A stretch of DNA of 39,067 bases, taken from assembly GCA_017443065.1 (NCBI GenBank), contig JAFSPF010000011.1, positions 1-39,067 of the forward strand, in the 5' to 3' direction. How positions within the stretch are numbered: position 1 is the stretch's first letter; the number at the start of each line of letters is the position of its first letter. Made by a program: the position numbers and the translations under genes. Below are positions 2,378 to 18,127 of this stretch, in pieces. Below the pieces are notes generated by a model. That model did no database searches and was not told where the DNA came from. It worked only from the letters and a program-made list of their open reading frames with translations. This stretch comes from Lachnospiraceae bacterium (GTDB lineage: Bacteria; Bacillota; Clostridia; Lachnospirales; Lachnospiraceae).

Positions 2378-4357
2378 TCAGGCAAGAATACGCATCTCTT
2401 CTGCAATCACGACAAAAAAATCGCCCTCGGAAAAAGTATACTCCAGCAACGCGCCACTTTGGTCTCTTTTGGGCGGATTCAAAACCGGCGCATCGTAACT
2501 CTCGGCATTCTTTCTCCTGTAACCGATAAAGATTTCATTTCGTTGCGCAACCGCATCAATCACGGCATACAGATGCATGCGTTCGTCCGTGGGGACATAA
2601 TGCCTGCATTCCTTAATGTATATTTCATATCCGTCACTCGTCAGCAATTCCTGAAATAACCCTGTGATCTCTTTTTTCTGGGCAATCTGTGCCATCAGCA
2701 ACGAGGCCATGTGTCTGCTGATGATAAAATCATCCTCTCCCGTTGCTGCCACAAGACGCTGGTTGCGTGCCATATGGATCTCGCTCGTAATGCGAAAACC
2801 CGCCTGTTTGAAATGGCGGTACTCTCTGAGGTACAAAAGCATTTTCAGACTGTGTTCGTCTTCCTTTTCCGGTGTATCCGTCTCATGATTGGTCAATACG
2901 ATGATACTTTCCGGCTGATATGTTTCCAGCAGACGGCCGATTTCCTCTTTTCCGTACCCCTCAGGCAGCTTTGTCTCGACCAGCTCCACCCCTTTTTCCA
3001 GCAATGCCTCTCTGGTCTTCTGACTGATCTCTTTCTTTCCGTTATTGTCATCCACCGCGATGATCCGTGAGCCCCGTTGTAAATACGAAACCTCTTCGCA
3101 CAGAACATCATTTGCCAGCCGGTGAATACCAATCAGCATACAGTTGTTTCTTTCAATCCGAATCTGATCCCTGATGTCGTACAAATCCGCGCCATATGCT
3201 TCGGATTCCAGCACGAAAGGATCATCATCGCTTTGCAATACAATCAGGCGGTCTCCCTCCTCAAACATGTTCTTATCCGGCGCGTCAATCACAATCCCGC
3301 GCTCTTTCTTCCAGACTCCGATCGCGATTGCATTGTTAAGGACATGGTTGATTTCCCGTACGGATTTATGGTAAAGCTTCGGATACAACTCATCCCGGTC
3401 AATGATATAAAACTCGGAGCCCAGAAAACTGAATACCTCCGTAAATACCAGGGAAAGCCCGGGCTGTCTGGATGTGTGGACAATGATCCGGGCAAGTGTT
3501 TTTTGCAGGGAAAGCATTTCAACTCTTAAACCGTCGTTCCTGTCGGTCCCGGCGATCAACGCTGTCGCCTCATTATCCTGTTCATAAATCACGGCAACGG
3601 CGTACGTCTCTGTACTTTCGGATTCCTCACCGATGATGCGTGTACAGGCAAGAATCGCCTTCGTCGTATCGAAATCAGAAAGCGTATTGATAATGACGGA
3701 CTTTGCCGACCGGATCGAGCACATTTCCAAATCCGCAAAATCATGGATGATCCCTTTTCTGCAGATGATCTTTGTGTTTTTGTAGCCGTCAACGTTTCTC
3801 AGTCTTCCCCTGATTTCATCCCCCATCAGGCTGACATCCATCTCGTCAAGTACGGTCACCGCCTGTTTTTTGGGCTGATTCCGGTTCGCTTCGATCAGCT
3901 CCCTCAGGATGATCAGCGCGTTGTCATTGTATCCGAGGATCACCGTATGATCCTGCTCCAGTACCCTGCTCCGTCCCTTTGCAAGTTCATTCATCTTTTT
4001 TGCGATCCCGTCACTGACAAGACCGATCAACAATGCCATGAAAAAAAGGCCGAACAGGGTTGCAATCAGCATCAGAACCAGAAAAACAGGTTTTACCTGA
4101 TTGTCCAGCGCACCGAGATTACCGGTGTCCAGTGTGCTCAGAAGGGTCTCCCACATGGACCAGAGCGTAAAGCCGCCGGTTTCGCGCAACAGAAGGGTTG
4201 CGATGACACCCATGATGATAATAAAAAAGAGCAGTACCACGAACAGAAGAATGATTTTTGAGGTCATTCCCTGGGACATGATATTATCTGCCCTGTATTT
4301 CAGGCGGCTTTTCCAATCACCCCGGTGATCCTGATTCAATCCTTGCCCCCCGGTCAT
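2378..4357 (-). CDS. CASTOR/POLLUX-type ion channel with TrkA-like regulatory domains
   Basis: Membrane ion channel of 659 residues. Helix 1 (about 34-57), a pore-loop-like segment (63-85, containing TLDTGN) and helix 2 (91-114) form a two-helix pore unit. A large cytoplasmic part follows, with two Rossmann-like RCK/TrkA-N units: the first begins at HTVILGYNDNA (about 137-147) and the second at NCMLIGIHRLAND (about 407). This matches the bacterial relatives of plant CASTOR/POLLUX channels, which conduct cations such as K+ or Ca2+ and are gated through the cytoplasmic ring. Ion and ligand cannot be read from sequence. Its ATG overlaps the stop of the preceding acidic-repeat gene (ATGA), so translation is probably coupled, making it the last gene of the tubulin/vWA operon. 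Confidence 0.8.
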   Translation of the reverse strand: MTGGQGLNQDHRGDWKSRLKYRADNIMSQGMTSKIILLFVVLLFFIIIMGVIATLLLRETGGFTLWSMWETLLSTLDTGNLGALDNQVKPVFLVLMLIATLFGLFFMALLIGLVSDGIAKKMNELAKGRSRVLEQDHTVILGYNDNALIILRELIEANRNQPKKQAVTVLDEMDVSLMGDEIRGRLRNVDGYKNTKIICRKGIIHDFADLEMCSIRSAKSVIINTLSDFDTTKAILACTRIIGEESESTETYAVAVIYEQDNEATALIAGTDRNDGLRVEMLSLQKTLARIIVHTSRQPGLSLVFTEVFSFLGSEFYIIDRDELYPKLYHKSVREINHVLNNAIAIGVWKKERGIVIDAPDKNMFEEGDRLIVLQSDDDPFVLESEAYGADLYDIRDQIRIERNNCMLIGIHRLANDVLCEEVSYLQRGSRIIAVDDNNGKKEISQKTREALLEKGVELVETKLPEGYGKEEIGRLLETYQPESIIVLTNHETDTPEKEDEHSLKMLLYLREYRHFKQAGFRITSEIHMARNQRLVAATGEDDFIISRHMASLLMAQIAQKKEITGLFQELLTSDGYEIYIKECRHYVPTDERMHLYAVIDAVAQRNEIFIGYRRKNAESYDAPVLNPPKRDQSGALLEYTFSEGDFFVVIAEEMRILA

Positions 4358-5889
4358 TTCTTTGTACGTGTTCTACGGCGCTTCTTCCCTTTCGGCGCAA
4401 TCTCCTCTGCCGGCGGGGTTTCCTCCCCTGCCGACGGCGCTTCTTCCTCTGCCGGAGGCGTCTCTTCCTCTGCAGGCGGTGCTTCTTCTGTCGGTGGCGT
4501 CTCTTCCTCTGCCGGTGCCTCTTCCTCTGCCGGCGGTGCCTCTTCCTCTGCCGGCGGCGCCTCCTCTTCTGCATGCGGCGCTTCTTCTTCTGCTGCCGGC
4601 AACGTCTCTTCCTCTGCCTGCGCTTCTTCCTCTGCCTGCGGCGCCTCATCTTCTGCGGGCGGTGCTTCTTCCTCTGCCGGCGCTTCATCTTCTACCGGCA
4701 CCTCTTCTTCTGCCAACGGTGCTTCTTCTATCTGCGCTTCTTCTTCTGCCGACGGCGCCTCTTCCTCTGCCGGCGTCATTGCGCTTTCCTCTTCCTCCCG
4801 TTTCTCCGGCAGCTCGGGAAGCAGCAGGCAGCCATCCTCCATATCGTAAAACGCACCGAAGATATCTAAAGCCAGCAGCTTACACTCGTCAATAATCAAA
4901 TACGGATGTTTTTGATATACTATCTCCGGCACCGCCACGGGAATCCCGCCCCCCGGCCGCGCTTCCGGACGTTCCTCCGCCGGTGCCTGCGGTTCTTCCT
5001 CTGCGGGTTCTTCTGTGTTTTCCTCCGCGGGTTCTTCCGTATTTTCCTCCACGGGTTCCTCCGTATCATCCTCCGCGGTTTCTTCCGTGTTTTCCTCCGC
5101 GGGTTCCTCCGTATCATCCTCCGCGGTTTCTTCCGTGTTTTCCTCCGCAGATTCTTCCGTATCTTCCCCCGCGCGATCTTCCGGGCCTTCCTCCGCGGGT
5201 ACCTCTGTGCTCTCCCCGAAAGGCTCCTCCGCCGGTGCTTCCGGGTTTTCCTCTGCCGATACTTCCGGATCTCCCTCTGCCGACGTTTCCGTATCTTCCT
5301 CCGCCGGTGCTTCCGGTTCGGGGAGAACGAAGGCTTCCGCCGCATCACGGATTTCCTGCATACATGCGACAAGGCGCGCACATTCCTCTCCCCGGAGATA
5401 ACGCCTTTCCTTTTCCGCGATTTCCCGCATTCGATGATAGAGCGGTTCCTTCTGTATCACGTTCCCCGCATCAGTTTCATTTTCAAGCTTTTCAAGCTCG
5501 CTTTGGAATTCTTTTTCTTTCTGATCCAGAAACACCAGATTGCAAACCGTCTGCATATATACTCTTCTGGCATAGGGATCATCGGTAGACTCCGGATGAA
5601 TCATCATGGACCAGTTGCGCAAACGGTTAAAATTTAATTCTCTCGGCGTAACGGAAAGCATGTTTTTGCTTTCCAGATGCTGTTCCGCCTTCTTTCTGTA
5701 TTTGTTGATTTCTTCCCTGTATTCCAGTATTTTCTGCAATTGTGTCTGCAGCTTTTCGATTCTTTTTTTGCGCAGAAGCTCCCTGCCGTCTCCGTGCAGG
5801 ATCAGTTCCTGTCTGGCCGCCTCATATTCGGTATACAGACGCTCAAGATATGCGCTGCCGTTTTCATAAAACTCCAAAAACCGGTTCAT
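4354..5889 (-). CDS. coiled-coil protein with two acidic Glu/Pro/Ala repeat blocks and basic tail
   Basis: About 511 residues; no known family recognised. The first 190 residues are charged and helical, probably coiled coil. Then come an acidic repeat block of TEEPAEEN/TEETAEDD-type units (about 120 residues), a short hydrophobic island that could fold (around YLIIDECKLLALDIFGAFYD), a second acidic block of EEEAPPA-type units (about 135 residues), and a basic end (GKKRRRTRTKK). There is no signal peptide or membrane helix. I chose ATG 5889 because GAGGA sits 8 bases upstream; an in-frame ATG at 5913 lacks such a site. The gene lies just after the DA1-like gene and overlaps the channel gene by 4 bases. 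It may be a flexible linker or scaffold whose positive tail contacts membrane, nucleic acid or an acidic partner; that is inference. Confidence 0.8.
   Translation of the reverse strand: MNRFLEFYENGSAYLERLYTEYEAARQELILHGDGRELLRKKRIEKLQTQLQKILEYREEINKYRKKAEQHLESKNMLSVTPRELNFNRLRNWSMMIHPESTDDPYARRVYMQTVCNLVFLDQKEKEFQSELEKLENETDAGNVIQKEPLYHRMREIAEKERRYLRGEECARLVACMQEIRDAAEAFVLPEPEAPAEEDTETSAEGDPEVSAEENPEAPAEEPFGESTEVPAEEGPEDRAGEDTEESAEENTEETAEDDTEEPAEENTEETAEDDTEEPVEENTEEPAEENTEEPAEEEPQAPAEERPEARPGGGIPVAVPEIVYQKHPYLIIDECKLLALDIFGAFYDMEDGCLLLPELPEKREEEESAMTPAEEEAPSAEEEAQIEEAPLAEEEVPVEDEAPAEEEAPPAEDEAPQAEEEAQAEEETLPAAEEEAPHAEEEAPPAEEEAPPAEEEAPAEEETPPTEEAPPAEEETPPAEEEAPSAGEETPPAEEIAPKGKKRRRTRTKK
4396..4806. 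repeat. tandem repeat coding for acidic block 2
   Basis: Degenerate short in-frame repeats, seen on + as variations of 'cttcctctgccggcggtg', encode EEEAPPA-type units. The dominant steps are 18-24 bases, multiples of three, so copy-number changes would keep the frame. Confidence 0.85.
4954..5319. repeat. tandem repeat coding for acidic block 1
   Basis: In-frame repeats, seen on + as variations of 'ttcctccgcgggttcttccg', encode TEEPAEEN/TEETAEDD units. The best-conserved part, about 5000-5160, contains long near-identical copies, which suggests recent duplication. The unit differs from that of block 2, so the blocks did not arise as one array. Confidence 0.85.
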
Positions 5890-5919
5890 ACTCATATTCC
5901 TCATGTCAGTCATTGCCGT

Positions 5920-8900
5920 TTACAGGGGCGGGAAATTATGAAACGGTGTCATCTGTGAGACGCTTCCGTCGGTCCGTATCCCGTATTTTTCCTTGTAGAG
6001 CCTGAAGCCGATGCCGTATTCATCTTCTCTGCACTCTAACAGCTGTTCCTGCTGATGCGCATATAAAGACTCTCCGATGATATACAGCAATTGTATTTCC
6101 GCCCAGCATGCCATCCCCTCATATACAATGAGGCGGTTCTTCTGGTCCCCGTACTGCTTGACGATGTCTTTGTCATTCCAATGCAGGTACTGCCAGATAT
6201 GCGTCATTTCATGCGCAATCGTGGAAATCGTCGCCAGACGCGGACTGCCGTTCTCTATAAAAATGGTAAACTTTGTTCCTTTTCTCTGGGCAAAACCCAG
6301 TGCTCTTTCCGCAACACCTTTGGACGGCGCAAACACCATACCGCCATGCTTGGCGATTTTTCTGGCATCGGCCGTCTGAACGGAGATGCCCGCCTTGTAG
6401 CGAATATCATAGGTGTTTTCCATCATGTTTCTTGTCTGCAGGAAAACGTTTTTGAAATCCGATACATCCGAAATGGCGGACGCCGAACAGTCATTGCAGC
6501 GGATTCTGCCGTCGGGAAGCATATCATAGCTGATTCCCGTCAGCGGCAACATACAGAAATCGCAATGATTCTCCACCTCAACGTCCTGCAACGTATCCTT
6601 GAATGCCATACGTTTTCTGGCTTTGCGGAGGTCATTGTCACCGCCATATCCCCGGATCGTCAGATACGCCTTTGTTTCTTCGATCACGAGCGATTCATCA
6701 ATTTCGTCAAAGCCAAACTTCAAACAGCACCGCTTCTGATACGAGGACTCATCCGCGGGAAGCAGGAGGTCCAGATCATCCTGAACGGCATTGTCCCGGA
6801 TCAGATCATCCTCCTCGCTGCGCAACATGGACTGTTCCTCGGGAATGTCGATCGCCGTGTCACCCGCGTCCGTACCGGGAGCAGGCGCGGCGTCACCCGC
6901 CCTTTGTGCCGCCATCGGCTCCGCAGCTTTCACCGGTTCTTCCTTCGGCGATTCTTTCGACTCTTCTTCCGGCTTTCTCTGAATGATTTTACCCCGGTTT
7001 AAATGTGTCATGCGCCTCCGCAGCTTTCCGAAAAAGTGGAGGATCGCATTTCTTCCCTTGACGGCTTCGTCTACCGGCATTTGGATCTCATGCATTTCTT
7101 CCTCTTTCTCCGGAAGTGCACGGATCTGTTCAAAATGCCAGTCAAGATAATCCGCAATCATCTCGAACAGTCTTCCCAGACAGTTTTCAACAGCCTCCAG
7201 CAGTCCGAGATCCATATCGCTGTCTTCCATGATGTAGATGCACGTTTCATCCGTCATGCCGTCCAGATAATAATTCATATAATCCAGCATGCCGTTCTCT
7301 TTCGGGGCTCTGACGGAAAGCGCAGCAATATACTGCCAGGAATCCGGAAAAACCGTCCGCAGCAGTTCATTGAACAATACGCAAATCGTGAATCGTGTCT
7401 GTTCATCCGTATCGGGCAGTGTCAGGCGCAGATAGGACTTGTGATGATAGCTCCGGCTGTAGGAATCAATGGAGGGATCGTCGCAAAGATCGATCAGCTT
7501 TGCGGTTCGGAGATCAAATATATCCCGCATCTCCAGGTAACCGGTCGTATCCACGGTGAAATCTCCGGACAGCACCGTGATGCCGATATCTCCCTCTTTC
7601 CTCTCGGAAAGCACCCTGCTTTCCTCCGCCAGGTGATAATACCTGATCTGACGGTAATACTTTCTCGATGTATAGTGATCCGAGGCTCTCTGCAATACAC
7701 AACCGATTCTCGGAGATACCTGCTTTACGGTATAATACTTTCCTTCATAGGTCACATGCTGGCCCGGCATGACAAGCTGTGTGATATGCTCAAACATCCT
7801 GGCGTCAATGATTTCCTTTTCGAAAGTTTCATCTTCAACGATAAAGAAGGCATTCATCAGTGTTTTGGCAAAGCGGGATTCGAATACGCTCCTTTCAATC
7901 CCGTAGTACATGACACTGTGCCGGATCAGATCCTCACCGATGACGGTTTTGCTGTTTTGCGTAAACACCGTATCCCGGATCCCGGTATAATAATAAATCT
8001 TGTTTTGCAGCAGGGACGGAATATCGCTTCCGTCCTTTCCGATCAGCTCATAGGCATGATGAATGTCCTGCTCACTGACCGGAGAACATGCCATGGCCAG
8101 GATCAGTCTCAGCGTGACGTTTCTTTCCGTGTTTGCATAGGCTGCCGTAATCGACGGAATGGCCTTGGGATCCGCAACGAACATCCTGTGATTGAAGCTC
8201 ATATAGTCACGAAGAAGATAGTTTTCGGACAGGACGTTGACAAAGGATTGCTGTTCTCCCCGCGTTGTATAAATACGGAACATTTCAAACAGGTTACAGA
8301 ATTCGTCTTCCGCAATCACAAACGCATGCTGATTGATCCGCAAATCCCAGAGATTCGCGCTGAAATGCATATGATCATCCAGGCTTTTCTGTTGTGCGGG
8401 CAAATGTGTGTATTTGCAGAATTGCTTGTAATACTGTCCGGCAATCCATTGGATGTCCCTGACGGGGGCCTTGGATTCGGAAATCCACACGGTATCCGGC
8501 ACCTGGTTTTTGATGGCAATCCCCGATAGCTCGATCCCGTTTCCGAGATAGTGCGTCTGTTGCTGGAACATTTTCTGTCTCAGAAAATCCCCGCAAGAAT
8601 CCCATGCCAGGGCTGTATATGTCCCATGGGACATCGGAGATGAAATCACATGTACGAATTCCGTTTCCAGCACATGGGAAAGGGTATCCACCAGACCGTC
8701 CGCATCATGGTCGCTGACAAAGAATACCTGCTGTGCCGTCCTTGTCTTTTCCGCGAGCAGCTTTAATCCGCTTTGCGCGGTCGCAAGGATTCTGGACGGT
8801 TCTAAGAGAATCACCAGTCCGGTTTCACGAAAAAAAGGTTCGTTTACGGAAAGAAGCTCCAGGTCATACAGCCTGGACGCCGGAAGAATGCCGACCTCAC

Positions 8901-9963
8901 AGTCCGGCGCGTTGCGGTCGAGTTCGCAGATTCGCCACAGTTTCCTTGTCCTCCCGTAACGGATCAGTTCATCGCGAAACCAGTTTTCCACATCCTTGCT
9001 GATCGAACTGCGCGCCACCACGATCATGACCTTTTTGGCATCTAACAGCTTCTGCAGGGCGGGGAGAAGAATATAATCGCTCAAATCCCTGTAAAACGGA
9101 TTCAGTACCATGATGTTCTCTCCGTGCAACATCATGTTTGTCGCGTTCACAAGGTCGGCATCATAAAACCCGCCCTTCTTTTTCAGATGATGAAAATAGT
9201 GCGCCGTAATGCGATCCGTCTCATCGTCCGAGGAATCCAGACGCTCAATCAGTTCAAAGGCGCCTTTTCTGCCGTAAAAATCACTTCCGGTATAGGTCCC
9301 GAGCAGGGCGCCGGGCAGCAGCTTTTCATAGACCTTTTTCAGCTTCTGGTAGGTGCCCATCAGAACGGAGGAACTGCTCTCGCCGCCGATGTCGTCCATG
9401 TACTCTTCCCTTGTGTTGCCGGAAAGAAAATTGAACACCTCCGTCATCACAACGACCGCAACGACCGGATATATGTTATAGTAAAAGGCGCTTCCGCGGC
9501 CGCCGATCCACCCCAGTCCCATGATCAGGCCGGAGGTGGCGGACAGCACGACGGAGAGTATCCCCGCCATGGATTTTATGTTTCGGCAGTCATCCCTGAG
9601 AAACCAGAGATTATAATCCTCGTCATACTCGTAAAACCTCTGGCATGTGGTCTCCATGAGAAGGTTGGAGCTCCAGAAGCGATTTGCGAATCCGAGAATC
9701 ACGCCCCGGACGGGAAGCCAGCCTCCTGCCAGGATCGAGTTGGCAATGATACGCTCGGCTCCCGCCATGCGTCCGACCGGAATCAGCAGAAGTCTGTCCA
9801 GAAAAAAGGCCGTGACCATGGAAACCACCATATAAATCGGGGCAGCAATCAAAAGCGGAAACTGTCTTCCCCTGATGTCTTTCTTCAGGTTGGCCTTTCT
9901 CAGGACAAAATGAATACTGCAGAATATGACGATGGAGCTGATCAGTTTAGCCGGCCACGGCAC
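5920..9963 (-). CDS. giant multi-pass membrane protein with C-terminal DA1-like zinc metallopeptidase
   Basis: About 1347 residues. The first 200 or so contain about five hydrophobic helices. The long middle part is soluble, alternates beta strands and helices, and looks somewhat like an ATPase or helicase fold (VVARSS, LVILLEPSRIL, VFFVSDHDADG), but I see no Walker A motif. An acidic, Pro-rich linker follows. The C-terminus carries a two-CxxC zinc knuckle (Cys1134/1137 and Cys1156/1159) and, about 95 residues on, IAHEMTHIWQY (His1251, Glu1252, His1255) with YEGMACWAE about 27 residues later supplying the likely third ligand. A LIM-like knuckle followed by HExxH and a downstream EG..xWxE resembles the DA1 peptidase family of plants and its bacterial relatives. 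The start is GTG 9963, with AGGGAGGAGG about 9 bases upstream; a TTG at 9987 overlaps that site. It overlaps the end of the preceding gene by 17 bases. Confidence 0.75.
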   Translation of the reverse strand: MPWPAKLISSIVIFCSIHFVLRKANLKKDIRGRQFPLLIAAPIYMVVSMVTAFFLDRLLLIPVGRMAGAERIIANSILAGGWLPVRGVILGFANRFWSSNLLMETTCQRFYEYDEDYNLWFLRDDCRNIKSMAGILSVVLSATSGLIMGLGWIGGRGSAFYYNIYPVVAVVVMTEVFNFLSGNTREEYMDDIGGESSSSVLMGTYQKLKKVYEKLLPGALLGTYTGSDFYGRKGAFELIERLDSSDDETDRITAHYFHHLKKKGGFYDADLVNATNMMLHGENIMVLNPFYRDLSDYILLPALQKLLDAKKVMIVVARSSISKDVENWFRDELIRYGRTRKLWRICELDRNAPDCEVGILPASRLYDLELLSVNEPFFRETGLVILLEPSRILATAQSGLKLLAEKTRTAQQVFFVSDHDADGLVDTLSHVLETEFVHVISSPMSHGTYTALAWDSCGDFLRQKMFQQQTHYLGNGIELSGIAIKNQVPDTVWISESKAPVRDIQWIAGQYYKQFCKYTHLPAQQKSLDDHMHFSANLWDLRINQHAFVIAEDEFCNLFEMFRIYTTRGEQQSFVNVLSENYLLRDYMSFNHRMFVADPKAIPSITAAYANTERNVTLRLILAMACSPVSEQDIHHAYELIGKDGSDIPSLLQNKIYYYTGIRDTVFTQNSKTVIGEDLIRHSVMYYGIERSVFESRFAKTLMNAFFIVEDETFEKEIIDARMFEHITQLVMPGQHVTYEGKYYTVKQVSPRIGCVLQRASDHYTSRKYYRQIRYYHLAEESRVLSERKEGDIGITVLSGDFTVDTTGYLEMRDIFDLRTAKLIDLCDDPSIDSYSRSYHHKSYLRLTLPDTDEQTRFTICVLFNELLRTVFPDSWQYIAALSVRAPKENGMLDYMNYYLDGMTDETCIYIMEDSDMDLGLLEAVENCLGRLFEMIADYLDWHFEQIRALPEKEEEMHEIQMPVDEAVKGRNAILHFFGKLRRRMTHLNRGKIIQRKPEEESKESPKEEPVKAAEPMAAQRAGDAAPAPGTDAGDTAIDIPEEQSMLRSEEDDLIRDNAVQDDLDLLLPADESSYQKRCCLKFGFDEIDESLVIEETKAYLTIRGYGGDNDLRKARKRMAFKDTLQDVEVENHCDFCMLPLTGISYDMLPDGRIRCNDCSASAISDVSDFKNVFLQTRNMMENTYDIRYKAGISVQTADARKIAKHGGMVFAPSKGVAERALGFAQRKGTKFTIFIENGSPRLATISTIAHEMTHIWQYLHWNDKDIVKQYGDQKNRLIVYEGMACWAEIQLLYIIGESLYAHQQEQLLECREDEYGIGFRLYKEKYGIRTDGSVSQMTPFHNFPPL

Positions 9964-12046
9964 GATCGTATACCTCCTCCCTGACAATTACCAGTTTATT
10001 CACAAATTCAAACGGAGATTCTACATATACGCCCATGCGGTTCAGTTCGACCATCCTGATCTTTTCACTTTCCAGTGAATACAGCGAATCAAAATCCGTG
10101 ATATCCGGCATATCCTCAATAAACTCCGCACGTTCCTGTGAAGATACGTCGATCTCGGTATGAAGCGCATTTGACCATTGAAGGATTTTTTCCGTCAGAA
10201 GATCGATTGCCTTGATTTGTGTCCTGCTGAAATAGTACGAACTGTCCAGCTTTCTGCGCTGGTCATCCAGTGCATTCAGATAACTGCTGCCGTTTGTATG
10301 TGTGGCCACATCGGAGAGAAAATCCGAATAAGACTCCGCATTTCTTGTCAATTCGCTGACGGTCTCCTGGCAGGTCTGGCGAAAAGCGCCAACCTCTTCA
10401 TATAACTGATTCTTGTGCCAGACCAGGATCACATACACGGCGATCACGATCACGAGGATGACAAATACCGCCATGATGATCAACAGACGTTTGTCTGCGG
10501 CTCCATCGGCTGTCAGAAGCGGTTCCAGCAGGCTGTCCAGCCCCTGCTTGACCCCGGCCGGCAGAAAGGAAAGCCATCCGCTGACCGTTCCGAACAGGTC
10601 CTTGGGAATCAGCGAAAGCGGTCCGATTTCGGTGCGACGCAAAAAACCGGGAACCAGTCCCACGATCATGAGCAGGACAGCCAACAACGCCATGACGACT
10701 GCCGTCGTACGGCTCATCCGGAAACGCAGCCGCTTCTTTACCGCCCGGTTCTTCTCCTCGACCGCCTCGTTCAAGGCCGGTAAATCATCCGGCAGAAGCG
10801 CATGGTTTTCCATGACATCGCGAAATGTGTTTTGCAACGATGCACGGAGATCCTCCTCCTGATACTGATTCAGCGGTCTGATCTCCGCTTCCGCAAAACC
10901 GCTCCTGTCACGAACGGCATCTGATGCACGGTCAAGCGAACGCTCCACGTTTTTCAGAATACTTCTGATTTCGGACGTGATACGTTCCACATACTGTTTC
11001 CAGTTGGCAATATCATTTGATTTCTCCCCGCCGAACAGACCGAATTCCTTGTCGTCCAGACCGATCCCGGAAAGCCTGGAGGTGACGAATTCAACAGGTA
11101 CCTCCACGTCTATCTCCGGTACCTGCTCCGCACCGGTCTTCTCCCGTTCCTGATCGGCACGGATCCGGTTCTCGAGCATTTCCTTTGCTTTGGACATGCG
11201 ATTTACTGACATCTGAAAACAGCTGCGCAAATCCTCCCAGTTCAGATCGATCCCCAGCCGGTATAAACGGTGCGCCTGTAGGGCATTCGGATCCATGCTT
11301 TCACCGCAGATCAGTCTGACGGCGCTCCAAAACCGGAACATATCCCTTTTTTTGCGCAAATCCCCCCTGAAGTCCATATCAAAGGTCAGAAACCGGCTGC
11401 CTGCAGGATAGAGATTTCTTTTCCAGAATTCCGAACTTTCGGATTCGATATGCATTTCCCAGGAATTGCTGACACGCTCCCGCAAATCAACAAATTCTTT
11501 TCCTATACTGCGCTTCAAAAGGATCAACTCCGTGGGGGGCGGTTCCTTCAGCTGCCACTGTCTGATCCAGCGCTCAAACGCAGCCTTTTTTTCGTCAAAA
11601 CCTTCTTTGTCCTTCTTTTTAAATACAAACTGCGGCATCTTAAACTCAGATGTCAGCTCGTCCGCCTCGAACTCCGGTTCGGGCGAAGGAATACCGCTCA
11701 AAAGATGCGTCAACCGGATGAGCGGAACGGGACTGTTCTGTATGATGCCGTCCGTTTCTTCCAGGCCGGGATCATCTGCGTACATCAAATAATCAAACGG
11801 ATTGAAGCGGTCTGTCTCAAACTGTTGATCCCCGCTCTCCGGCTCAATCTGGATGATCACGGCTCTCCACTGGCGCTTGTCCGCAATCAGATCGTACAGT
11901 TTGGGTACGGCGGTTTCTATCGTTTCGCCACCGGGGGTCCACTGACACACCCCGATCTGACCCGTCTTTAACGCGTCGTGAAACAGGACTTCATATTCCC
12001 TGAAGCTGTCAAGGGTTTTTCCCGGTAGTATTAATACAGTATACAT
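9947..12046 (-). CDS. two-helix membrane protein of the tubulin/vWA operon
   Basis: 699 residues; no family recognised. The N-terminal 430 residues look cytoplasmic: a beta/alpha start (MYTVLILPGKT) followed by charged helical stretches. Two membrane helices lie at about 447-467 and 521-543, with a roughly 50-residue amphipathic loop between them. The C-terminal 150 residues are helical and probably coiled coil, returning to the same side as the N-terminus. The start is ATG 12046 with a weak GGGAT site. The gene follows the tubulin-like gene by 21 bases, and its end overlaps the DA1-like gene. It may anchor the tubulin-like protein to the membrane; this is inferred only from topology and context. 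Confidence 0.75.
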   Translation of the reverse strand: MYTVLILPGKTLDSFREYEVLFHDALKTGQIGVCQWTPGGETIETAVPKLYDLIADKRQWRAVIIQIEPESGDQQFETDRFNPFDYLMYADDPGLEETDGIIQNSPVPLIRLTHLLSGIPSPEPEFEADELTSEFKMPQFVFKKKDKEGFDEKKAAFERWIRQWQLKEPPPTELILLKRSIGKEFVDLRERVSNSWEMHIESESSEFWKRNLYPAGSRFLTFDMDFRGDLRKKRDMFRFWSAVRLICGESMDPNALQAHRLYRLGIDLNWEDLRSCFQMSVNRMSKAKEMLENRIRADQEREKTGAEQVPEIDVEVPVEFVTSRLSGIGLDDKEFGLFGGEKSNDIANWKQYVERITSEIRSILKNVERSLDRASDAVRDRSGFAEAEIRPLNQYQEEDLRASLQNTFRDVMENHALLPDDLPALNEAVEEKNRAVKKRLRFRMSRTTAVVMALLAVLLMIVGLVPGFLRRTEIGPLSLIPKDLFGTVSGWLSFLPAGVKQGLDSLLEPLLTADGAADKRLLIIMAVFVILVIVIAVYVILVWHKNQLYEEVGAFRQTCQETVSELTRNAESYSDFLSDVATHTNGSSYLNALDDQRRKLDSSYYFSRTQIKAIDLLTEKILQWSNALHTEIDVSSQERAEFIEDMPDITDFDSLYSLESEKIRMVELNRMGVYVESPFEFVNKLVIVREEVYDRAVAG

Positions 12047-12067
12047 AAGGATATCCCGAACATCGTC

Positions 12068-14488
12068 TTATCTTGTGCGCAGCTTTCTCCAGGTGTTTTC
12101 CACATTCTCCGCTTCATCCAGCATGCCGATTTCTTCCAGTTCCTTTGCGATCATCTGACACTGATAAATAAACAGTGAGTCGTTAAACAAGTCCGGATAC
12201 TGCTTCACATCGGATTTCATGTCCTCGATAAAGCGGTTGAACTGTTTGTAAAGGAAATTGCCGTATACAATGTTCAATTCCTTCTGGGTGACAAAGTATG
12301 CATGATACGCCTTTATTTCACTGACAATCGTGGCCAGAAGCTGAATCATGTTTTTCTCATAGTACAGCTCGGAGGGAACCGACATCTTCATCAGCATCGG
12401 CAGATCCAGCAGACATCTGACCTTGTCCGAGCCGTCCTCCCCCTGCAGCGGAAACTCATCCACCCGGAAGCTGTGGATGTACTTGTAGAGCGTACTGGTT
12501 TCCAACGGCGTCTTGGCATACTTGTCATTGTCAATCAGTGACTCCACGCGGTCAGATACGAGGCGGACCAGACGCGGATAAATCGTAAACGCATCCAGCA
12601 CCTCATAGAGATGATCACAGGATGTGCCGTTGGAAACAACAAGCTGATCCAGATCATCGGTCGATTTCAGATTGAGTCTGACCTCGTTCGCACTGTAAAT
12701 GTTTTTCTTTTCGTTGTCCTTCACCAGTCTGACAAACTGTCCGAGCATTCCCCAGAAGAACGATCTGTATATCCGCTTCTCCTGATCTTCCTGGCTCTGT
12801 TCGTCCAGGTCAGGCAGTTTGGTGATGACATGCCACCAGCGGTCGATATGCGGTGTAATCGCCCTGGAACGGTGGGATTCGGGATGCAGCATTTCCACCA
12901 GCTCATAATAGGCCTTGTAATACTCGCCGTCCGGCTGATCCTTGGTCTGGGTTTTCTGCGGCGGTCTGAACTTGCTCAGGTCATTTGCGCGGATATCATA
13001 AACGGAGGAGTAGAATAATATCATGTTACGGTCAATCCCCTCATCTTCCACGCCGCCTTTGCTCTTTAAATGCTTGCTGACAAACTGCTTTCTCCCGGGA
13101 AAATCGGCCTTGATCGGATCCGTGAGATCCGTGCTGTATGCACAGGCCGTGATCACACGAGGTTCTTTTCCTGCGGGCGACTCGATAAACGGCTTGGAAA
13201 GCCGGATAGCCTCTTCGATGGCATTCTGTGCGTGAAGCTTTGCCTCGTTATCATCGTAAACCGCTTCCGGTTTCTGGAATTTTGCTTCCTTTTCAAGTGC
13301 CGTCAGCACATCCATATCCACAACGGACATGTAATGTCCCATCACCTCGCCTTCCAGATACTTCACCACGGTTTCCTGGAATGCGTCCGTAAAGTAAGCT
13401 TCCGACTCAGGCTTTTTATCGGCAAGCGCATAGCGTTTCATCCTGTTAAATATTTTCGAAGAAAGATCAGAAGGAATGTCCAGGCTACTGCCCAGATTCA
13501 CGACTTCATCAGCCAGTCCCCTGAGACACATTTGATCGGCACATACGTAGCGAAGAGCCATGCCGGGCTTATACTGGTATTTCTCCTCCAACTGGTCGAT
13601 TTCCTTACCGATTTTTGCAACATTTCTGTCCAATACATCATAAAAGTCATGAAATGCGCCACTAAGGCTTGTAAGGTAATTGATCGCCTCACGGAATACC
13701 AGCTGACTGCAACATTTTTCCCAGTATTCACTTGTTTTACGAAACAGGGCAGTCATCTGTTCAACAAGATTGGATCTTCCTTCCTTCATCTTTCCCCTAA
13801 AGCGAATTCTGGCAAATTTCCCGTCCTCATTCAGCTTCATCATCTCGATATACTCGCTTTCCGTTTCCACATGGTCTTCTGTCTCATCAATATCGAATGT
13901 ATTTTTTTCGAAGTTTTTCCAGAATCCCCTGATATCCTCTACTTCGGCCTTGGACTCGGCTTCCTTCTGACGCAATTCCGCAATGGCATTATAAATGAAG
14001 AATCTGACCGCATTCGGATGGATAAAGACCTCCTTTGCACGCAGCCAGTATTCCAGCCTGTATTTCTGATCCGTTTTTGTATAATCCTTTTTATCCTTAA
14101 ACAGGCTGTATGTTGCGTTTCGCGCAATCCGCTCCGTGATTTTGATTGTGGCGTTTTTATATCCAAGCAGCTGCTGGTACCACTGGGAGAAATCCGCACC
14201 TGCCGCAGTCTTTTCATTTGCTGCTTCCGCCTTTCGCTTAATCTCGGAGATCATGTCATCAAGTTCAACCCTGTGATCCTCCACCATGGTATTGATATAG
14301 TTTTCGAGTTCTTCGATATAGCTATTCCATTTCACATTCTTTTCCGCGAACCCCTTGGCATCAAACTCCATACACAAGTTACGGATCGCGGAACGGAAAG
14401 GCTTTTGTTCCGCGAATCCCTGGTTTACAATATCGATATAATGTCTGGAACGATCCAGTTCAGCCACCTGATATCCCTGTTGCTTCAT
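12068..14488 (-). CDS. tubulin-like protein, 3' fragment of frameshifted gene
   Basis: 806 residues counted from the first ATG, although the frame is open upstream to the frameshift at about 14625. It is rich in Glu, Lys, Asp and Tyr, mostly helical, with no signal peptide, no membrane helix and no known domain that I recognise. The 14488 ATG has no ribosome binding site (upstream bases are GACCATCAAGAGC), which supports its being an internal Met of the full gene. In an intact protein this is the long C-terminal extension typical of large tubulin-like proteins and may bind the membrane partner encoded next. Confidence 0.75.
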   Translation of the reverse strand: MKQQGYQVAELDRSRHYIDIVNQGFAEQKPFRSAIRNLCMEFDAKGFAEKNVKWNSYIEELENYINTMVEDHRVELDDMISEIKRKAEAANEKTAAGADFSQWYQQLLGYKNATIKITERIARNATYSLFKDKKDYTKTDQKYRLEYWLRAKEVFIHPNAVRFFIYNAIAELRQKEAESKAEVEDIRGFWKNFEKNTFDIDETEDHVETESEYIEMMKLNEDGKFARIRFRGKMKEGRSNLVEQMTALFRKTSEYWEKCCSQLVFREAINYLTSLSGAFHDFYDVLDRNVAKIGKEIDQLEEKYQYKPGMALRYVCADQMCLRGLADEVVNLGSSLDIPSDLSSKIFNRMKRYALADKKPESEAYFTDAFQETVVKYLEGEVMGHYMSVVDMDVLTALEKEAKFQKPEAVYDDNEAKLHAQNAIEEAIRLSKPFIESPAGKEPRVITACAYSTDLTDPIKADFPGRKQFVSKHLKSKGGVEDEGIDRNMILFYSSVYDIRANDLSKFRPPQKTQTKDQPDGEYYKAYYELVEMLHPESHRSRAITPHIDRWWHVITKLPDLDEQSQEDQEKRIYRSFFWGMLGQFVRLVKDNEKKNIYSANEVRLNLKSTDDLDQLVVSNGTSCDHLYEVLDAFTIYPRLVRLVSDRVESLIDNDKYAKTPLETSTLYKYIHSFRVDEFPLQGEDGSDKVRCLLDLPMLMKMSVPSELYYEKNMIQLLATIVSEIKAYHAYFVTQKELNIVYGNFLYKQFNRFIEDMKSDVKQYPDLFNDSLFIYQCQMIAKELEEIGMLDEAENVENTWRKLRTR

Positions 14489-14607
14489 GCTCTTGATGGT
14501 CTTCTGCTCATCCGCAAACTGTCTGTCAATATCGAGCCATTCATCCGTGATGCTGTCCCTGGTCCATGACAGTGCCAGATACTTCTTTACGTCATCCGTC
14601 GGATAGA

Positions 14608-15561: not shown

Positions 15562-15594
15562 GATGATCTCCTTTTTCAACTGTTGACGTGTTAT

Positions 15595-18045
15595 TTATTT
15601 AAATGTAAAGATTCCGAGCCGTTTTCCCGTTTTGGGATCAAGGCTCACGATTTCAAAACTCCCGGTGCCAAAGTTTTTCTTTCTCAGTTTCTGCATATCG
15701 TCATATTTTTCGCTGTTGATTCTCGTGTTTGGCAAATCCAGCGATTTATTCTGGATATGGAATGTGTTTTTCCCTGTTGCGACAATCTTTAAGTCCGGGA
15801 AATTGCATTGGAACCCGCTGTTATTACACTTTACGGTTGCTTTTTCCGGCACATATGGCAATATGACGCTGAAGAAATCCTTATTGATTTTGCGTTTTGC
15901 AGATATGGATTTTTTGTATTTGCAGCGCGGATTCAGTCTTTTTACCTTCAGTCTCTTTTTCTTGATATAGCCAATCAGCAAAAACAGGGCTCCCGCTGCT
16001 GCGGCTACACGGGGACCGAGGATCCTCAGCCACTCCGCCCATGTCAGCGGTTCGATATACAGATTTTTTTCCGCGCTTCCGCGATACAGATACTCACCCG
16101 ATTCTGCCTCTCCGTCGAGCCGGATTGTGACATCGCCGGAGGAAGTCCTGATCGGATCACCGCCATTATGACGCGGGGCGATCCTCCAGGTCCCCGTTTC
16201 CGTCCCCTTTTCGATCTCCCAGTCAAGACCTGCTCCGGAAATCTCGAGCTCCATGTTGTTCCATACGTCAAACGGCAGCTCCTCTTCCTCTCCGGTGACG
16301 GGATTCACCATGCGGCATTCCACGGGCATCGGTTTTGCTTCCCCGAGGTTGCTGACCCGGTACTCTCCCTCCGGTTCCCCGATCGTGAAACGGATTTCGG
16401 ATGCTTCATAGGCACTGACACTTAAGGCGAGCTCCGCAGAGCCGAATGCCGTCTGTTTGTCAACTTCAAAAGAGGCCGATACCGCAAAACCGTGATCGCC
16501 GGTTTCAATCCCCTTTACGGAATTGTCCGCGGAAAGCGGCTTCAGTTCCCAGGTGCTGTTTTCCTTTCCCTTGCTGACCTGCCACCGGATTCCGGCCTTA
16601 TCCTCGATCTGCAGATCCAGCGCATCCTGCTGTTCGTCTGTCAGCAACGCACCGGTCTCCTCATCTGTGACGGTCAGCAGGATTGGTGATGACGTTTCGG
16701 AGAACTGATCCTGCCTGTAAGAGGAAGTCTGCGGCTCAATTGTCAGCTTCAGCGCCATCGGTTCCGGCAGAACGGTATAACTGCGAACCGTGGAGAGCCG
16801 CACATGTCCCGGGAGTTCGGCAAGCGCACGCAGGGTGACATTGCCGACCGCCAGTTTGACGCTCCCCTTTTTCTGTTTCAATTCCTGCTCCGTATCATTG
16901 TTTTCGACCGTCAGCGAAAACTCCGGTGATTGCAGCAACTCCGATTCGATTTCCGTATTCGTCAGCGGGTTCACGAAATTCATCCTGACTTCGTAATCAC
17001 CGGAATACAGCGCGTCGTCTGCATTAACGGGATTGCCCCTGTATTCCAGTCCGCAGCTTACCTCAACCCCGGGCTGATAATAGTACTCGACGGACTCCGC
17101 GTCACTGACCTCCACGGAAAACGTGCCGGGTTCAAACAGCTCATCCGGCTCATAGATCGCGAGAATACCATTCAGTGTCTCATCGGCAATGGCATTGGGG
17201 CGGTTCGCGGGAACGACGTCGCTGTATTTCACCTGATGCGTTGTGGAAGGGGATACCGCTTTCCCATTGATGGAAGCTTTTCCCACCGCGACATCGTTTC
17301 CCTGTGCAAAAACAATAATCTGTCTGGTCGGTATATCAATATTCAGGATGCTTTCCTGTGCTTTTTTTTCGATAAAACGGTCATCAAGAATGAGTCTTTG
17401 GAAAATCTGGTTTGCCATTGCGCAAACCTTGATCAGCACGTCCACGCCGTCTGCGGCTCTTGTGGAATAGGCACCGTTTTGCGGATTCTCCTCCATCTCG
17501 AAAGCATCATCGCCGATAGCCAAATACGCCGTCTTCATACCTTTCGTATTGTACTCGTTTAGTGCCGCCTGCGCCGTATCCTTAGGTGTTCTTCCGTCGT
17601 CAAATTCGCCGTCCGTGATGATCACGAGCCATTTTTCATATTTATCATCCTCTTTTTCCAGGGCCTGCGAGGCACTCTGGACAGACAAAAAAGGCGTATG
17701 GCCGGCATCGGTATTCATGTCATGGATGGTCTTTACCCTGTTCCGGTCAGAACCCTTCAGGGTCAGTCCGGACGCTCCGTTCAGGCTCATCGGATAAATC
17801 ACCATCACATCATCCGCACCCATCATGGCCGCAAAAACTTCCATGGCATACTTTGCCTGACTCCAGCGCATAATCGGCGTCCCGGAAGCCGCAAACATGG
17901 ATCCGGAATCATCATAAACCACATATATCATTCTGCCTGAGAACTCTTCCGGCGCATCCGCACGCACCTTCATCGGCAGAGCGCCGAGAAGAAGAATCAG
18001 AAGAAGAATCGAAAGCATCTTTTTGGGCAATGTGCCATGAAGCAT
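15595..18045 (-). CDS. exported vWA-domain protein with C-terminal membrane anchor
   Basis: 816 residues. A signal peptide (hydrophobic core about 11-24, cleavage probably after VRA) is followed directly by a von Willebrand A domain. Its MIDAS metal site is complete: D45-x-S47-x-S49 (YDDSGSM), a Thr in GHTPF, and Asp in ITDGEFDD. Several beta-rich, Ig-like stretches follow. A single membrane helix lies at about 674-694, and a basic cytoplasmic tail of about 120 residues ends the protein. vWA domains bind ligands through the metal ion, so this subunit probably senses or binds something outside and contacts the tubulin-like protein inside through its tail. The start ATG 18045 has GGAAGG 8 bases upstream. 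The open frame continues upstream to 18657, but that part is antisense to mgtE and is not coding. Confidence 0.88.
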   Translation of the reverse strand: MLHGTLPKKMLSILLLILLLGALPMKVRADAPEEFSGRMIYVVYDDSGSMFAASGTPIMRWSQAKYAMEVFAAMMGADDVMVIYPMSLNGASGLTLKGSDRNRVKTIHDMNTDAGHTPFLSVQSASQALEKEDDKYEKWLVIITDGEFDDGRTPKDTAQAALNEYNTKGMKTAYLAIGDDAFEMEENPQNGAYSTRAADGVDVLIKVCAMANQIFQRLILDDRFIEKKAQESILNIDIPTRQIIVFAQGNDVAVGKASINGKAVSPSTTHQVKYSDVVPANRPNAIADETLNGILAIYEPDELFEPGTFSVEVSDAESVEYYYQPGVEVSCGLEYRGNPVNADDALYSGDYEVRMNFVNPLTNTEIESELLQSPEFSLTVENNDTEQELKQKKGSVKLAVGNVTLRALAELPGHVRLSTVRSYTVLPEPMALKLTIEPQTSSYRQDQFSETSSPILLTVTDEETGALLTDEQQDALDLQIEDKAGIRWQVSKGKENSTWELKPLSADNSVKGIETGDHGFAVSASFEVDKQTAFGSAELALSVSAYEASEIRFTIGEPEGEYRVSNLGEAKPMPVECRMVNPVTGEEEELPFDVWNNMELEISGAGLDWEIEKGTETGTWRIAPRHNGGDPIRTSSGDVTIRLDGEAESGEYLYRGSAEKNLYIEPLTWAEWLRILGPRVAAAAGALFLLIGYIKKKRLKVKRLNPRCKYKKSISAKRKINKDFFSVILPYVPEKATVKCNNSGFQCNFPDLKIVATGKNTFHIQNKSLDLPNTRINSEKYDDMQKLRKKNFGTGSFEIVSLDPKTGKRLGIFTFK

Positions 18046-18099
18046 ACAGCCTGCCTTCCAATTTAATACTTCGTTTTGTAAATATGTAAAGATGCAGTC

Positions 18100-18127
18100 A
18101 TAATACCATTTTTTTTTTTTTTTGCAA
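18100..18127 (-). promoter_or_regulatory. candidate promoter of the vWA/tubulin operon
   Basis: On the minus strand TTGCAA (18122-18127) and TATTAT (18100-18105) are 16 bases apart. The spacer is almost entirely an A tract, likely curved. A transcript would start near 18093, about 50 bases before the vWA ATG. Confidence 0.55.

What the first reader, a model, noticed from the sequence alone, without database searches (positions are those of the whole stretch)
2378..18127. Six-gene operon combining a tubulin-like GTPase, exported vWA protein, DA1-like peptidase and CASTOR-type channel
Seen: six co-directional genes with overlaps or short gaps behind one candidate promoter. They encode an outside-facing vWA protein with a cytoplasmic tail, a tubulin-superfamily protein, a two-helix membrane protein, a 1347-residue membrane protein with a zinc peptidase module, an acidic repeat protein and an ion channel. 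Known: a tubulin-like family was linked to vWA proteins in a predicted membrane-remodelling system (Makarova and Koonin 2010, from memory). Inference: an envelope-spanning, cytoskeleton-like machine that links an outside signal to polymer state, proteolysis and ion flux. I know of no description of this gene set.
Basis: partly seen in the sequence, partly recalled or inferred. Interest (0 to 1): 0.88.

Follow-up and report, generated by a model that had tools for sequence, protein, structure and literature searches.

The report
Relic of a tubulin-linked secretion machine
A rumen-type gut bacterium carries an altered copy of a gene set, seen in dozens of related gut bacteria, that ties a bacterial cousin of tubulin to membrane proteins and, in its closest relatives, to a motor and toxins of the kind bacteria export to fight each other.

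Summary
The six genes are there, but their reading changes. (1) vWA, tubulin-like, two-helix and 1347-aa genes form a conserved core: all three partners lie upstream of the large gene in 65 of 66 loci with enough sequence. (2) The large protein's middle folds like the helicase MrfA (Foldseek E 2.9e-20), but invariant PFxxD and EP stand where I place motifs I and II (57 of 57 rows); a zinc site and HExTH follow. (3) The 'acidic repeat protein' starts with the stalk of an ATPase related to type VII EccC/YukB; its motor is gone. (4) In 18 of 85 loci the stalk carries the motor. Two small proteins follow in 14 of 14 such loci with 6 kb downstream, against 0 of 46 others (profiles largely built from these loci), and toxin domains in at least 8 of the 14. 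(5) The tubulin gene is frameshifted in this assembly. Best reading: a tubulin-linked, type-VII-like toxin exporter whose window copy lost motor and substrates. Export is inferred; I found no description in the papers searched.

The parts
15595..18045 (-). vWA protein: N-terminal export segment, vWA domain with intact MIDAS (DDSGS), one C-terminal membrane helix, about 125-residue cytoplasmic tail
   Evidence: in 66 long vWA frames of the loci 66 have the C-terminal helix and 64 a hydrophobic segment within the first 120 residues
14608..15561 (-). tubulin-like GTPase (Tubulin_2), N-terminal part with GGTGSG
   Evidence: Pfam Tubulin_2 3.8e-53; 60-62% identical to intact relatives
12068..14488 (-). 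tubulin-like GTPase, C-terminal helical part, in another frame (listed from its first ATG): the gene is broken between the two parts in this assembly
   Evidence: 33% identical to residues from 361 on of intact 1154-1165 aa relatives
9947..12046 (-). two-helix membrane protein, alpha/beta N-terminal half and long helices; no solved fold matches
   Evidence: pLDDT 84.5; best E 0.053
5920..9963 (-). 1347-aa membrane protein: N-terminal membrane helices, SF2/DUF1998-helicase-like core without helicase motifs, zinc module, HExTH metallopeptidase motif
   Evidence: (pLDDT 84.0)
9085..9099 (-). PFYRD, with P, F and D invariant, where I place helicase motif I
   Evidence: P, F and D in 57 of 57 rows
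6487..6564 (-). four-cysteine zinc-type site (C-x2-C ... C-x2-C), LIM-like
   Evidence: each cysteine in 56 of 57 rows
6199..6213 (-). HEMTH metallopeptidase motif
   Evidence: HExTH in 55 of 57 rows
4354..5913 (-). acidic protein: ATPase stalk (5377-5889), acidic repeats, short possible remnant of the first inactive FtsK-like domain; no ATPase domain
   Evidence: no motor homologue elsewhere in the genome except a weak match in another ATPase on C78 (26% identity)
2378..4357 (-). CASTOR/DMI1-type ion channel
   Evidence: Pfam 1.2e-16; PDB CASTOR 6o6j 4e-37
608..2317 (-). lipase-like lipoprotein, possible seventh gene
   Evidence: Lipase_3 1.1e-8; 60-base gap; GC 0.392

Best explanation
The window holds a derived member of a conserved envelope complex. 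Its four core genes encode an exported vWA protein, a tubulin-family GTPase, a two-helix membrane protein and a membrane-anchored pseudo-helicase/metallopeptidase. In the window's own clade the complex works, I infer, like a type VII secretion system: an EccC-like ATPase docks on the core through its N-terminal stalk and exports a pair of small, probably helical proteins together with polymorphic toxins. The tubulin-like GTPase would form or gate the cytoplasmic base, the vWA protein would sense or open the cell-surface side, and the peptidase would process the substrate or a component. The window copy has lost the motor, the small proteins and the toxins, keeps the stalk (now extended by acidic repeats) and has a CASTOR-type channel, and its tubulin frame is broken, so it is probably not an active exporter. 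Shown: gene linkage, homologies, fold match, motif conservation. Inferred: export, docking, gating, processing, loss of function.
For: Core linkage: twoTM 78 of 80, tubulin 73 of 73, vWA 66 of 66, all three 65 of 66 loci with enough upstream sequence (85 loci = 80 returned of 135 relatives, plus 11 from G genomes, minus 6 duplicates). Motor: best solved relatives are the EccC/YukB type (4nh0 1.6e-15, 5fv0 and 4lya about 1e-9, 9qks 2.9e-9) ahead of FtsK (2.8e-4); Walker A in 19 of 19 ATPases examined, one of them the separate EssC-type protein of G334. Toxin domains after the motor: Gln_amidase, ADP-ribosyltransferase, colicin-type/WHH nuclease, DNA/RNA endonuclease, above the Pfam cut-off in 5 of 10 downstream frames scanned and in 2 of the 4 frames downstream of the G009 motor scanned; some carry the second small-protein domain at the N terminus. 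Small pair: 14 of 14 with fused motor and at least 6 kb downstream, 0 of 46 without (with L082 put by hand among the motor loci because its large gene is split; by the bare rule 13 of 13 and 1 of 47). Loss in the window: stalk matches the motor profile at E 9.3e-39 and the stalk of motor-bearing L064 at 49% over 137 residues; the tree puts the window in a set of 5 rows with support 100, two of them with fused motor; no full motor homologue in its genome, and no small-protein match where the same search finds them in G009, G051 and G123.
Against: Most loci have no motor: of 65 with at least 4 kb downstream, 15 have fused stalk and motor, 7 stalk alone, 43 neither. Motor plus small pair also occurs without any tubulin in about 40 kb (G123). 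The small proteins lack the WXG motif (0 of 16 and 0 of 26 profile hits) and match the WXG100 profile only weakly (hhalign 73.9% and 37.6%); no structure of them was predicted. Their profiles were built largely from these same loci, so 14 of 14 is mostly by construction: apart from G051, a near copy of G009, only L077 and L130 were in neither profile; the informative part is the absence in the 46. Five of ten downstream frames scanned showed no toxin family above cut-off. No experiment shows export. The helicase relation rests on fold alone; a profile comparison with three DUF1998 helicases found nothing. The tree is of the quick kind (FastTree).
Confidence: 0.58

Rival explanations
1. The four-gene core is a sensing or conflict-signalling device, not an exporter. 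The motor-toxin cassette was added in one clade; the general partners are TIR proteins, CASTOR-type channels, TrkA/RyR-like proteins and transglutaminase-like lipoproteins.
For: Of 35 loci without stalk or motor and with at least 8 kb downstream, 23 have at least one of these partners: transglutaminase 16, TIR 14, TrkA/RyR 14, channel 8 (families named, RyR at E 0.0054 only, below its cut-off). Strong channel homologues occur in 5 of 397 family genomes, 4 of them genomes with the core (p 6e-7).
Against: The same partners also accompany the motor-bearing loci (12 of 13 have at least one), and PADLOC models hit nothing in the eight window frames below E 0.028. No background rate of these partner families was measured.
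Confidence: 0.27
2. It is the membrane-remodelling machine that Makarova and Koonin predicted for FtsZl1/vWA genes.
For: Tubulin_2 family, vWA neighbour with intact MIDAS and several membrane partners; their text.
Against: No GTPase or OmpA partner among the eight window frames; relatives add an EccC-like motor and toxins, which remodelling does not explain. A second operon type also joins tandem tubulins to an EccC-like ATPase (G292, G444, G466).
Confidence: 0.1
3. The window copy is a decaying relic without present function.
For: Frameshift in the tubulin gene, lost motor domain, no small-protein match in the genome.
Against: Five of the six genes are full open frames, including the 1347-aa protein with its motifs; the frameshift may be an assembly error in a draft genome of 144 contigs. 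Stalk-only loci recur in several branches (9 of 85 loci; 5-6 changes of that label on the tree), so a motor-free form may work.
Confidence: 0.35

Closest known systems
FtsZl1/vWA predicted system (Makarova and Koonin 2010, PMC2875224)
   Same: Tubulin_2-type protein with GGTGSG and a helical C-terminal extension, beside an exported vWA protein with intact MIDAS
   Different: No GTPase, kinase or OmpA hit here; instead a two-helix protein, a pseudo-helicase/peptidase, an ATPase stalk and a channel; in relatives an EccC-like motor and toxins
Type VII secretion systems T7SSa-j (Garrett et al. 2024, PMC11217815)
   Same: In relatives of the window: EccC/EssC-related ATPase, small proteins, polymorphic toxins with small-protein-like N-terminal domains
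   Different: That paper holds 'tubulin' 0 times (search listing) and 'FtsZ' 0 times; its T7SSc has a vWA protein but predicts it cytoplasmic. Here no WXG motif, no FHA hit in the G009 motor, and the window copy has no ATPase
Type VII variants with a YueA-like ATPase of 3 FtsK/HerA domains, only the middle one active (footnote in Zhang et al. 2012, PMC3482391)
   Same: Walker A motif near residue 520 of about 1170 in all 18 fused motors examined; a second Walker-A-like pattern only in L079
   Different: The footnote names other phyla and solo WXG proteins; 'tubulin' and 'FtsZ' occur 0 times in the held part of the text
MrfA / DUF1998 SF2 helicases
   Same: Fold over 816 alignment columns (6znp, E 2.9e-20)
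   Different: Helicase motifs I and II replaced, membrane helices added, peptidase domain added; no profile-level similarity
DA1-type peptidases
   Same: LIM-like cysteines followed by HExxH and a distal EGMA motif (the comparison with DA1 motifs is recalled)
   Different: Below Pfam cut-off (12.1 against 25 bits); different context
CASTOR/POLLUX/DMI1 channels
   Same: Window channel matches CASTOR 6o6j at 4e-37
   Different: Bacterial, coupled to this operon; the channel family usual in these loci is only about 19-24% identical to it

Membership tests
FtsZl1/vWA system | Tubulin_2 (FtsZl1) protein with GGGTG(S/T)G-type loop | tested here: met
   GGTGS-type motif in 65 of 72 tubulin frames examined, the other 7 being the window's C part or frames cut at a contig edge
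FtsZl1/vWA system | adjacent vWA gene with MIDAS | tested here: met
   66 of 66 loci with enough upstream sequence; DxSxS in 62 of 65 vWA frames, the other 3 being two cut frames and the window frame read from too early a start (the window's DDSGS is seen)
FtsZl1/vWA system | P-loop GTPase, kinase or OmpA partner | tested here: not met
   no such Pfam hit among the 8 window frames
Type VII secretion system | EccC/EssC ATPase in the window or its genome | tested here: not met
   only the stalk and a weak match in another ATPase, which I take, untested, for a SpoIIIE/FtsK DNA translocase
Type VII secretion system | EccC/EssC-related ATPase in relatives of the same clade | tested here: met
Type VII secretion system | ATPase anchored in the membrane | tested here: inconclusive
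   hydropathy scan: no segment in 14 of 17 motors and one marginal one in 3, but it finds none in the EssC-type protein of G334 either
Type VII secretion system | WXG100 protein | tested here: not met
   window genome: no match at E 0.001 (where 17 of 41 genomes rang); relatives: small pair without WXG motif, weak profile similarity
Type VII secretion system | export of substrates that depends on the ATPase | not testable with these tools
   needs culture
Type VII secretion system | ubiquitin-like TsxB/YukD | not tested
   not searched
SF2/DUF1998 helicase | two RecA-like domains plus DUF1998-type fold | tested here: met
   Foldseek (MrfA chains are ranks 1-3)
SF2/DUF1998 helicase | Walker A / DExH / motif VI | tested here: not met
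   invariant PFxxD and EP at the places taken for motifs I and II; no QxxGRxxR pattern in 57 rows; a Walker-A-like pattern somewhere in 2 of 57
DA1-like peptidase | zinc cysteines and HExxH | tested here: met
DA1-like peptidase | curated profile score | tested here: not met
CASTOR/POLLUX channel | Castor_Poll_mid and similarity along the channel | tested here: met

The most novel reading that the evidence does not exclude
A separate class of protein-export machine in which a tubulin-family GTPase, instead of the usual membrane ring of type VII systems, builds or gates the cytoplasmic base of a channel, and an EccC-like motor plugs in through a detachable stalk. FtsZl1/vWA operons, known since 2010 without a function, would be at least in part secretion systems: two different operon types link them to EccC-like ATPases.
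Probability: 0.3. Interest if true: 0.93.

Novelty: new variant of a known kind. Interest (0 to 1): 0.8.

Why it matters
FtsZl1 (Tubulin_2) proteins have been a family without a known function since 2010, as far as the papers that I searched tell. Linking them to EccC-like motors and polymorphic toxins in gut and rumen Clostridia gives a concrete hypothesis that can be tested in existing isolates, and it would be the first tubulin-family component of a protein-export machine known to me. The pseudo-helicase fused to a conserved peptidase is a protein architecture that I know of no description of (it was not searched for by name in the papers). The graded loss of the motor (full, cut before the active domain, stalk only, stalk plus acidic repeats) suggests that the stalk is a separate docking module.

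Tried and rejected
Anti-phage defence system: PADLOC scan of the eight window frames gave one hit, at E 0.028. Membership in T7SSa-j: rejected for the window because no ATPase and no WXG100 was found. Sequence-profile proof of the helicase relation: hhalign against three DUF1998 helicases of relatives gave 1.1%; I keep the relation as a fold match only. Fold of the two-helix protein: no PDB match below E 0.05. Promoter: number of such sites not clearly above chance. First counting run for stalk and motor gave 0 stalks because the large-protein profile ends before its gene does; redone from gene ends, and with L082 (split large gene, motor present) put by hand among the motor loci. The stalk profile was seeded with the window itself; I therefore rely, which were not. 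Orthology of the window channel with the usual channel of these loci: only distant (19-24%), so I do not call it the same gene. An empty search for the small proteins in the own genome had no positive control; one search repeats it with G009, G051 and G123, which ring. Rows dropped: 6 duplicate loci; 55 of the 135 relatives, which the tool did not return; 3 of 85 loci from the tree (no large-protein frame in the first gene table, or one under 900 aa); (23 of 397 genomes) I count 19 as true Tubulin_2, leaving out G271, G281 and G450 (below cut-off) and G275 (39 bits, over the cut-off but partial, not inspected). In the first gene tables antisense frames hid some real genes (for example the channel of G222 and genes of L094, L099, L103); one search used all frames.
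Full report
WHERE IT IS. The window is the whole contig C68 (39067 bases) of a draft genome of 2.83 Mb in 144 contigs. Two genomes of the same genus, G051 and G009, have contigs of the same lengths as the named records L065 and L084, both titled Butyrivibrio sp.; I infer a Butyrivibrio-like rumen bacterium.

WHAT IS IN THE WINDOW. Six genes on the minus strand follow one another with overlaps or short gaps. The tubulin-like gene is broken by a frameshift near 14630; its two parts match one continuous protein of 1154-1165 aa in G051 and G009. Whether this is real or an assembly error cannot be told here; intact copies exist in relatives. A lipase-like lipoprotein gene of low GC (0.392) starts 60 bases after the channel.

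THE CORE IS FOUR GENES. A profile of the large protein found it in 9 of 397 genomes of the family; in 99 nearer relatives it gave matches in 4 genomes at the reporting limit, three of them strong (G000, G009, G051) and one a 91-position match at E 6e-4; and in a collection of 84,980 species genomes 135 relatives were confirmed, of which 80 were returned. By their titles these are mostly gut and rumen Clostridia; two are titled Solobacterium, one Humibacter albus and one an uncultured actinobacterium. In 85 non-redundant loci, counting only those with enough upstream sequence, the two-helix gene is upstream in 78 of 80, the tubulin gene in 73 of 73, the vWA gene in 66 of 66, and all three in 65 of 66; the exception, G334, has a 701-aa protein in the two-helix position that the profile does not recognise. 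All 9 family genomes with the large protein also hold Tubulin_2, against 19 of 397 that I count as true Tubulin_2 (p 1.5e-13).

THE LARGE PROTEIN. AlphaFold2 of residues 200-1347 with 57 sequences gave mean pLDDT 84.0. Against solved structures the first three ranks are chains of MrfA, an SF2 helicase of the DUF1998 family (E 2.9e-20 to 4.0e-16, about 800 columns, 11-13% identity), followed by Hel308, Mtr4 and Lhr. The sequence does not show this: a profile comparison with three DUF1998 helicases of relatives gave nothing, and Pfam sees only the C-terminal end. Where I place motif I all 57 rows have the P, F and D of 'PFYRD', and where I place motif II all 57 have 'EP' (the placing is my reading of the fold and of the sequence order). 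Four cysteines are each kept in 56 of 57 rows and HExTH in 55 of 57. I conclude: a membrane-anchored pseudo-helicase with a probably active metallopeptidase.

THE ACIDIC PROTEIN IS A STRIPPED ATPASE. In G051 and G009 the gene in this place encodes 1194-1196 aa, in G009 with an FtsK/SpoIIIE domain (Pfam 2.2e-16). Its best solved relatives are EccC, EssC-like and YukB proteins of type VII secretion (the same entries with a profile of 14; that some of these entries are EccC or EssC proteins although titled otherwise is recalled). The window protein matches the first 190 positions of that profile, which does not contain the window, at E 9.3e-39; to the ATPase of L064 it is 49% identical over 137 residues, and a 27-residue piece further on matches the start of the first, inactive domain at E 0.005 to 0.07. 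Fused stalk and motor occur in 18 of 85 loci (L082, whose large gene is split, counted in), stalk alone in 9. L066 and L109 keep stalk and first domain and stop before the active one; G385, G252, L055, L057 and L086 keep the stalk alone; L097 is cut by a contig edge. In a FastTree of 82 large proteins the loci with stalk or motor lie in one set (30 rows, support 97: 18 motor, 8 stalk, 4 neither), and the window lies in a set of 5 (support 100) with two motor-bearing rows. Motor loss in the window's line, and several times elsewhere, is the simplest reading; the tree is of the quick kind.

WHAT FOLLOWS THE MOTOR. In motor-bearing loci come two small proteins of mostly 90-116 aa (probably helical by their sequence; no structure was run), toxin domains (glutamine deamidase, ADP-ribosyltransferase, colicin-type/WHH nuclease, DNA/RNA endonuclease), small partner proteins that may be immunity proteins, and often a CASTOR-like channel, a TrkA/RyR-like protein or TIR proteins. 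Toxin families were above cut-off in 2 of the 4 frames scanned downstream of the G009 motor and in 5 of 10 frames from seven other loci; with the like genes of G051 and L083 that is at least 8 of the 14 motor loci with 6 kb downstream; L064, L068, L081 and L130 were not scanned for toxins. Some toxins carry the second small-protein domain at the N terminus. Both small proteins are found in 14 of 14 such loci and in 0 of 46 others (13 of 13 and 1 of 47 before L082 was moved by hand). The profiles were made largely from these loci, so the 14 of 14 is mostly by construction; apart from G051, a near copy of G009, only L077 and L130 were in neither profile. Similarity to WXG100 is weak and no profile hit has the WXG motif (0 of 16 and 0 of 26). 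A Pfam EspC hit is at E 7.5e-4, below its cut-off.

A SECOND LINK. The motor profile also hit genomes without the large protein: in all 34 of 397 genomes at E 1e-10, many at scores that other FtsK/EssC/SpoIIIE-type ATPases would reach; the hits in G000, G252 and G385 are stalk only. I looked at six others. G444, G466 and G292 have a vWA gene, two or three tandem Tubulin_2 genes and an EccC-like ATPase in one run of genes; G123 has motor, both small proteins and a transglutaminase-like gene but no tubulin in about 40 kb; the G345 contig is 7 kb long and shows no tubulin; the G299 ATPase lies on another contig than its Tubulin_2 gene. Of the other Tubulin_2 genomes in the family sample, G299 and G443 have vWA genes next to tubulin without a motor in the fetched stretch, and G138, G227, G258, G278 and G306 have Tubulin_2 genes without a recognised vWA gene or motor near. 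In four more Tubulin_2 genomes of the order (G070, G085, G086, G098) no motor was found in the stretches fetched. So the link to an EccC-like ATPase is recurrent but not universal.

THE CHANNEL. The window channel is a clear CASTOR/DMI1 relative and rare: in 99 relatives only the window, a second copy in the same genome with an in-frame TAG, and G062. The channel usual in these loci is a distant cousin (19-24% identity), with strong homologues (50% identity or more) in 5 of 397 family genomes, 4 of which have the core: next to it in G222, G252 and G331, and about 29 kb beyond it on the same contig in G334. The window thus has a different channel in a comparable place.

MECHANISM. Shown: linkage, homologies, motif conservation, fold. 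Inferred: the core spans the membrane (vWA outside with a C-terminal helix and a tail of 107-205 residues in 66 of 66 long frames; the two-helix and large proteins in the membrane; tubulin inside); the motor docks through its stalk; small proteins and toxins are exported. In the window, motor and small proteins are missing and no toxin gene was seen in the operon, so if the copy does anything it is sensing, ion flux or proteolysis through the remaining parts.

NOVELTY. Seen: Makarova and Koonin 2010 (PMC2875224, parts 1-3 of 5), Garrett et al. 2024 (PMC11217815, outline, passages and part 2 of 3 of the results), Zhang et al. 2012 (PMC3482391, passages; the library holds its first 300,000 characters), a survey of the FtsZ/tubulin family of 2023 (PMC9871819, passages). 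None of the read parts describes a tubulin with a type VII-like motor. Literature searches were in an open-access library only; subscription papers and preprints were not searched.

Noticed in passing
window 608-2317: Lipase_3 lipoprotein gene of low GC directly after the channel; possible seventh gene or recent arrival.
   Followed up: partly
L049/L050 (G334:C16 80843-117999): One long cluster with TIR proteins, the tubulin core, a kinase, an FHA-bearing EssC-type ATPase and WXG100 genes (WXG100 E 1.4e-14): the core sits beside what looks like a more ordinary type VII locus.
   Followed up: partly
L178/L194/L195 (G444:C6) and L179/L190 (G466:C12): Three tandem Tubulin_2 paralogues in one run of genes with vWA and an EccC-like ATPase; G292 has two, each split into two frames.
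   Followed up: partly
L199 (G227), L201 (G278), L207 (G138): Short Tubulin_2 genes (800-843 aa) without a recognised vWA gene, next to a gene that looks like peptide release factor 3 (name recalled from the sequence).
   Followed up: no
L177 (G123:C66): EccC-like motor, both small proteins and a transglutaminase-like gene near a recombinase-like gene (name recalled), without tubulin in about 40 kb: perhaps a mobile motor cassette.
   Followed up: partly
G000:C136:354-2153: A second CASTOR-type channel in the same genome, 33% identical, with one in-frame TAG.
   Followed up: no
L016 12278-13251 (G051) and L079 9744-10675: The first toxin frame overlaps the preceding small-protein frame in another reading frame.
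   Followed up: no
L090, L094, L112, L118, L119, L120, L124, L133: The transglutaminase-like domain is in one frame with the large core protein (1823-1970 aa), which suggests that it works on the same side or substrate.
   Followed up: no
window 18122-39067: The other half of the window (an MgtE-like transporter and a substrate-binding lipoprotein, names recalled from the sequence, and further genes) was not studied.
   Followed up: no
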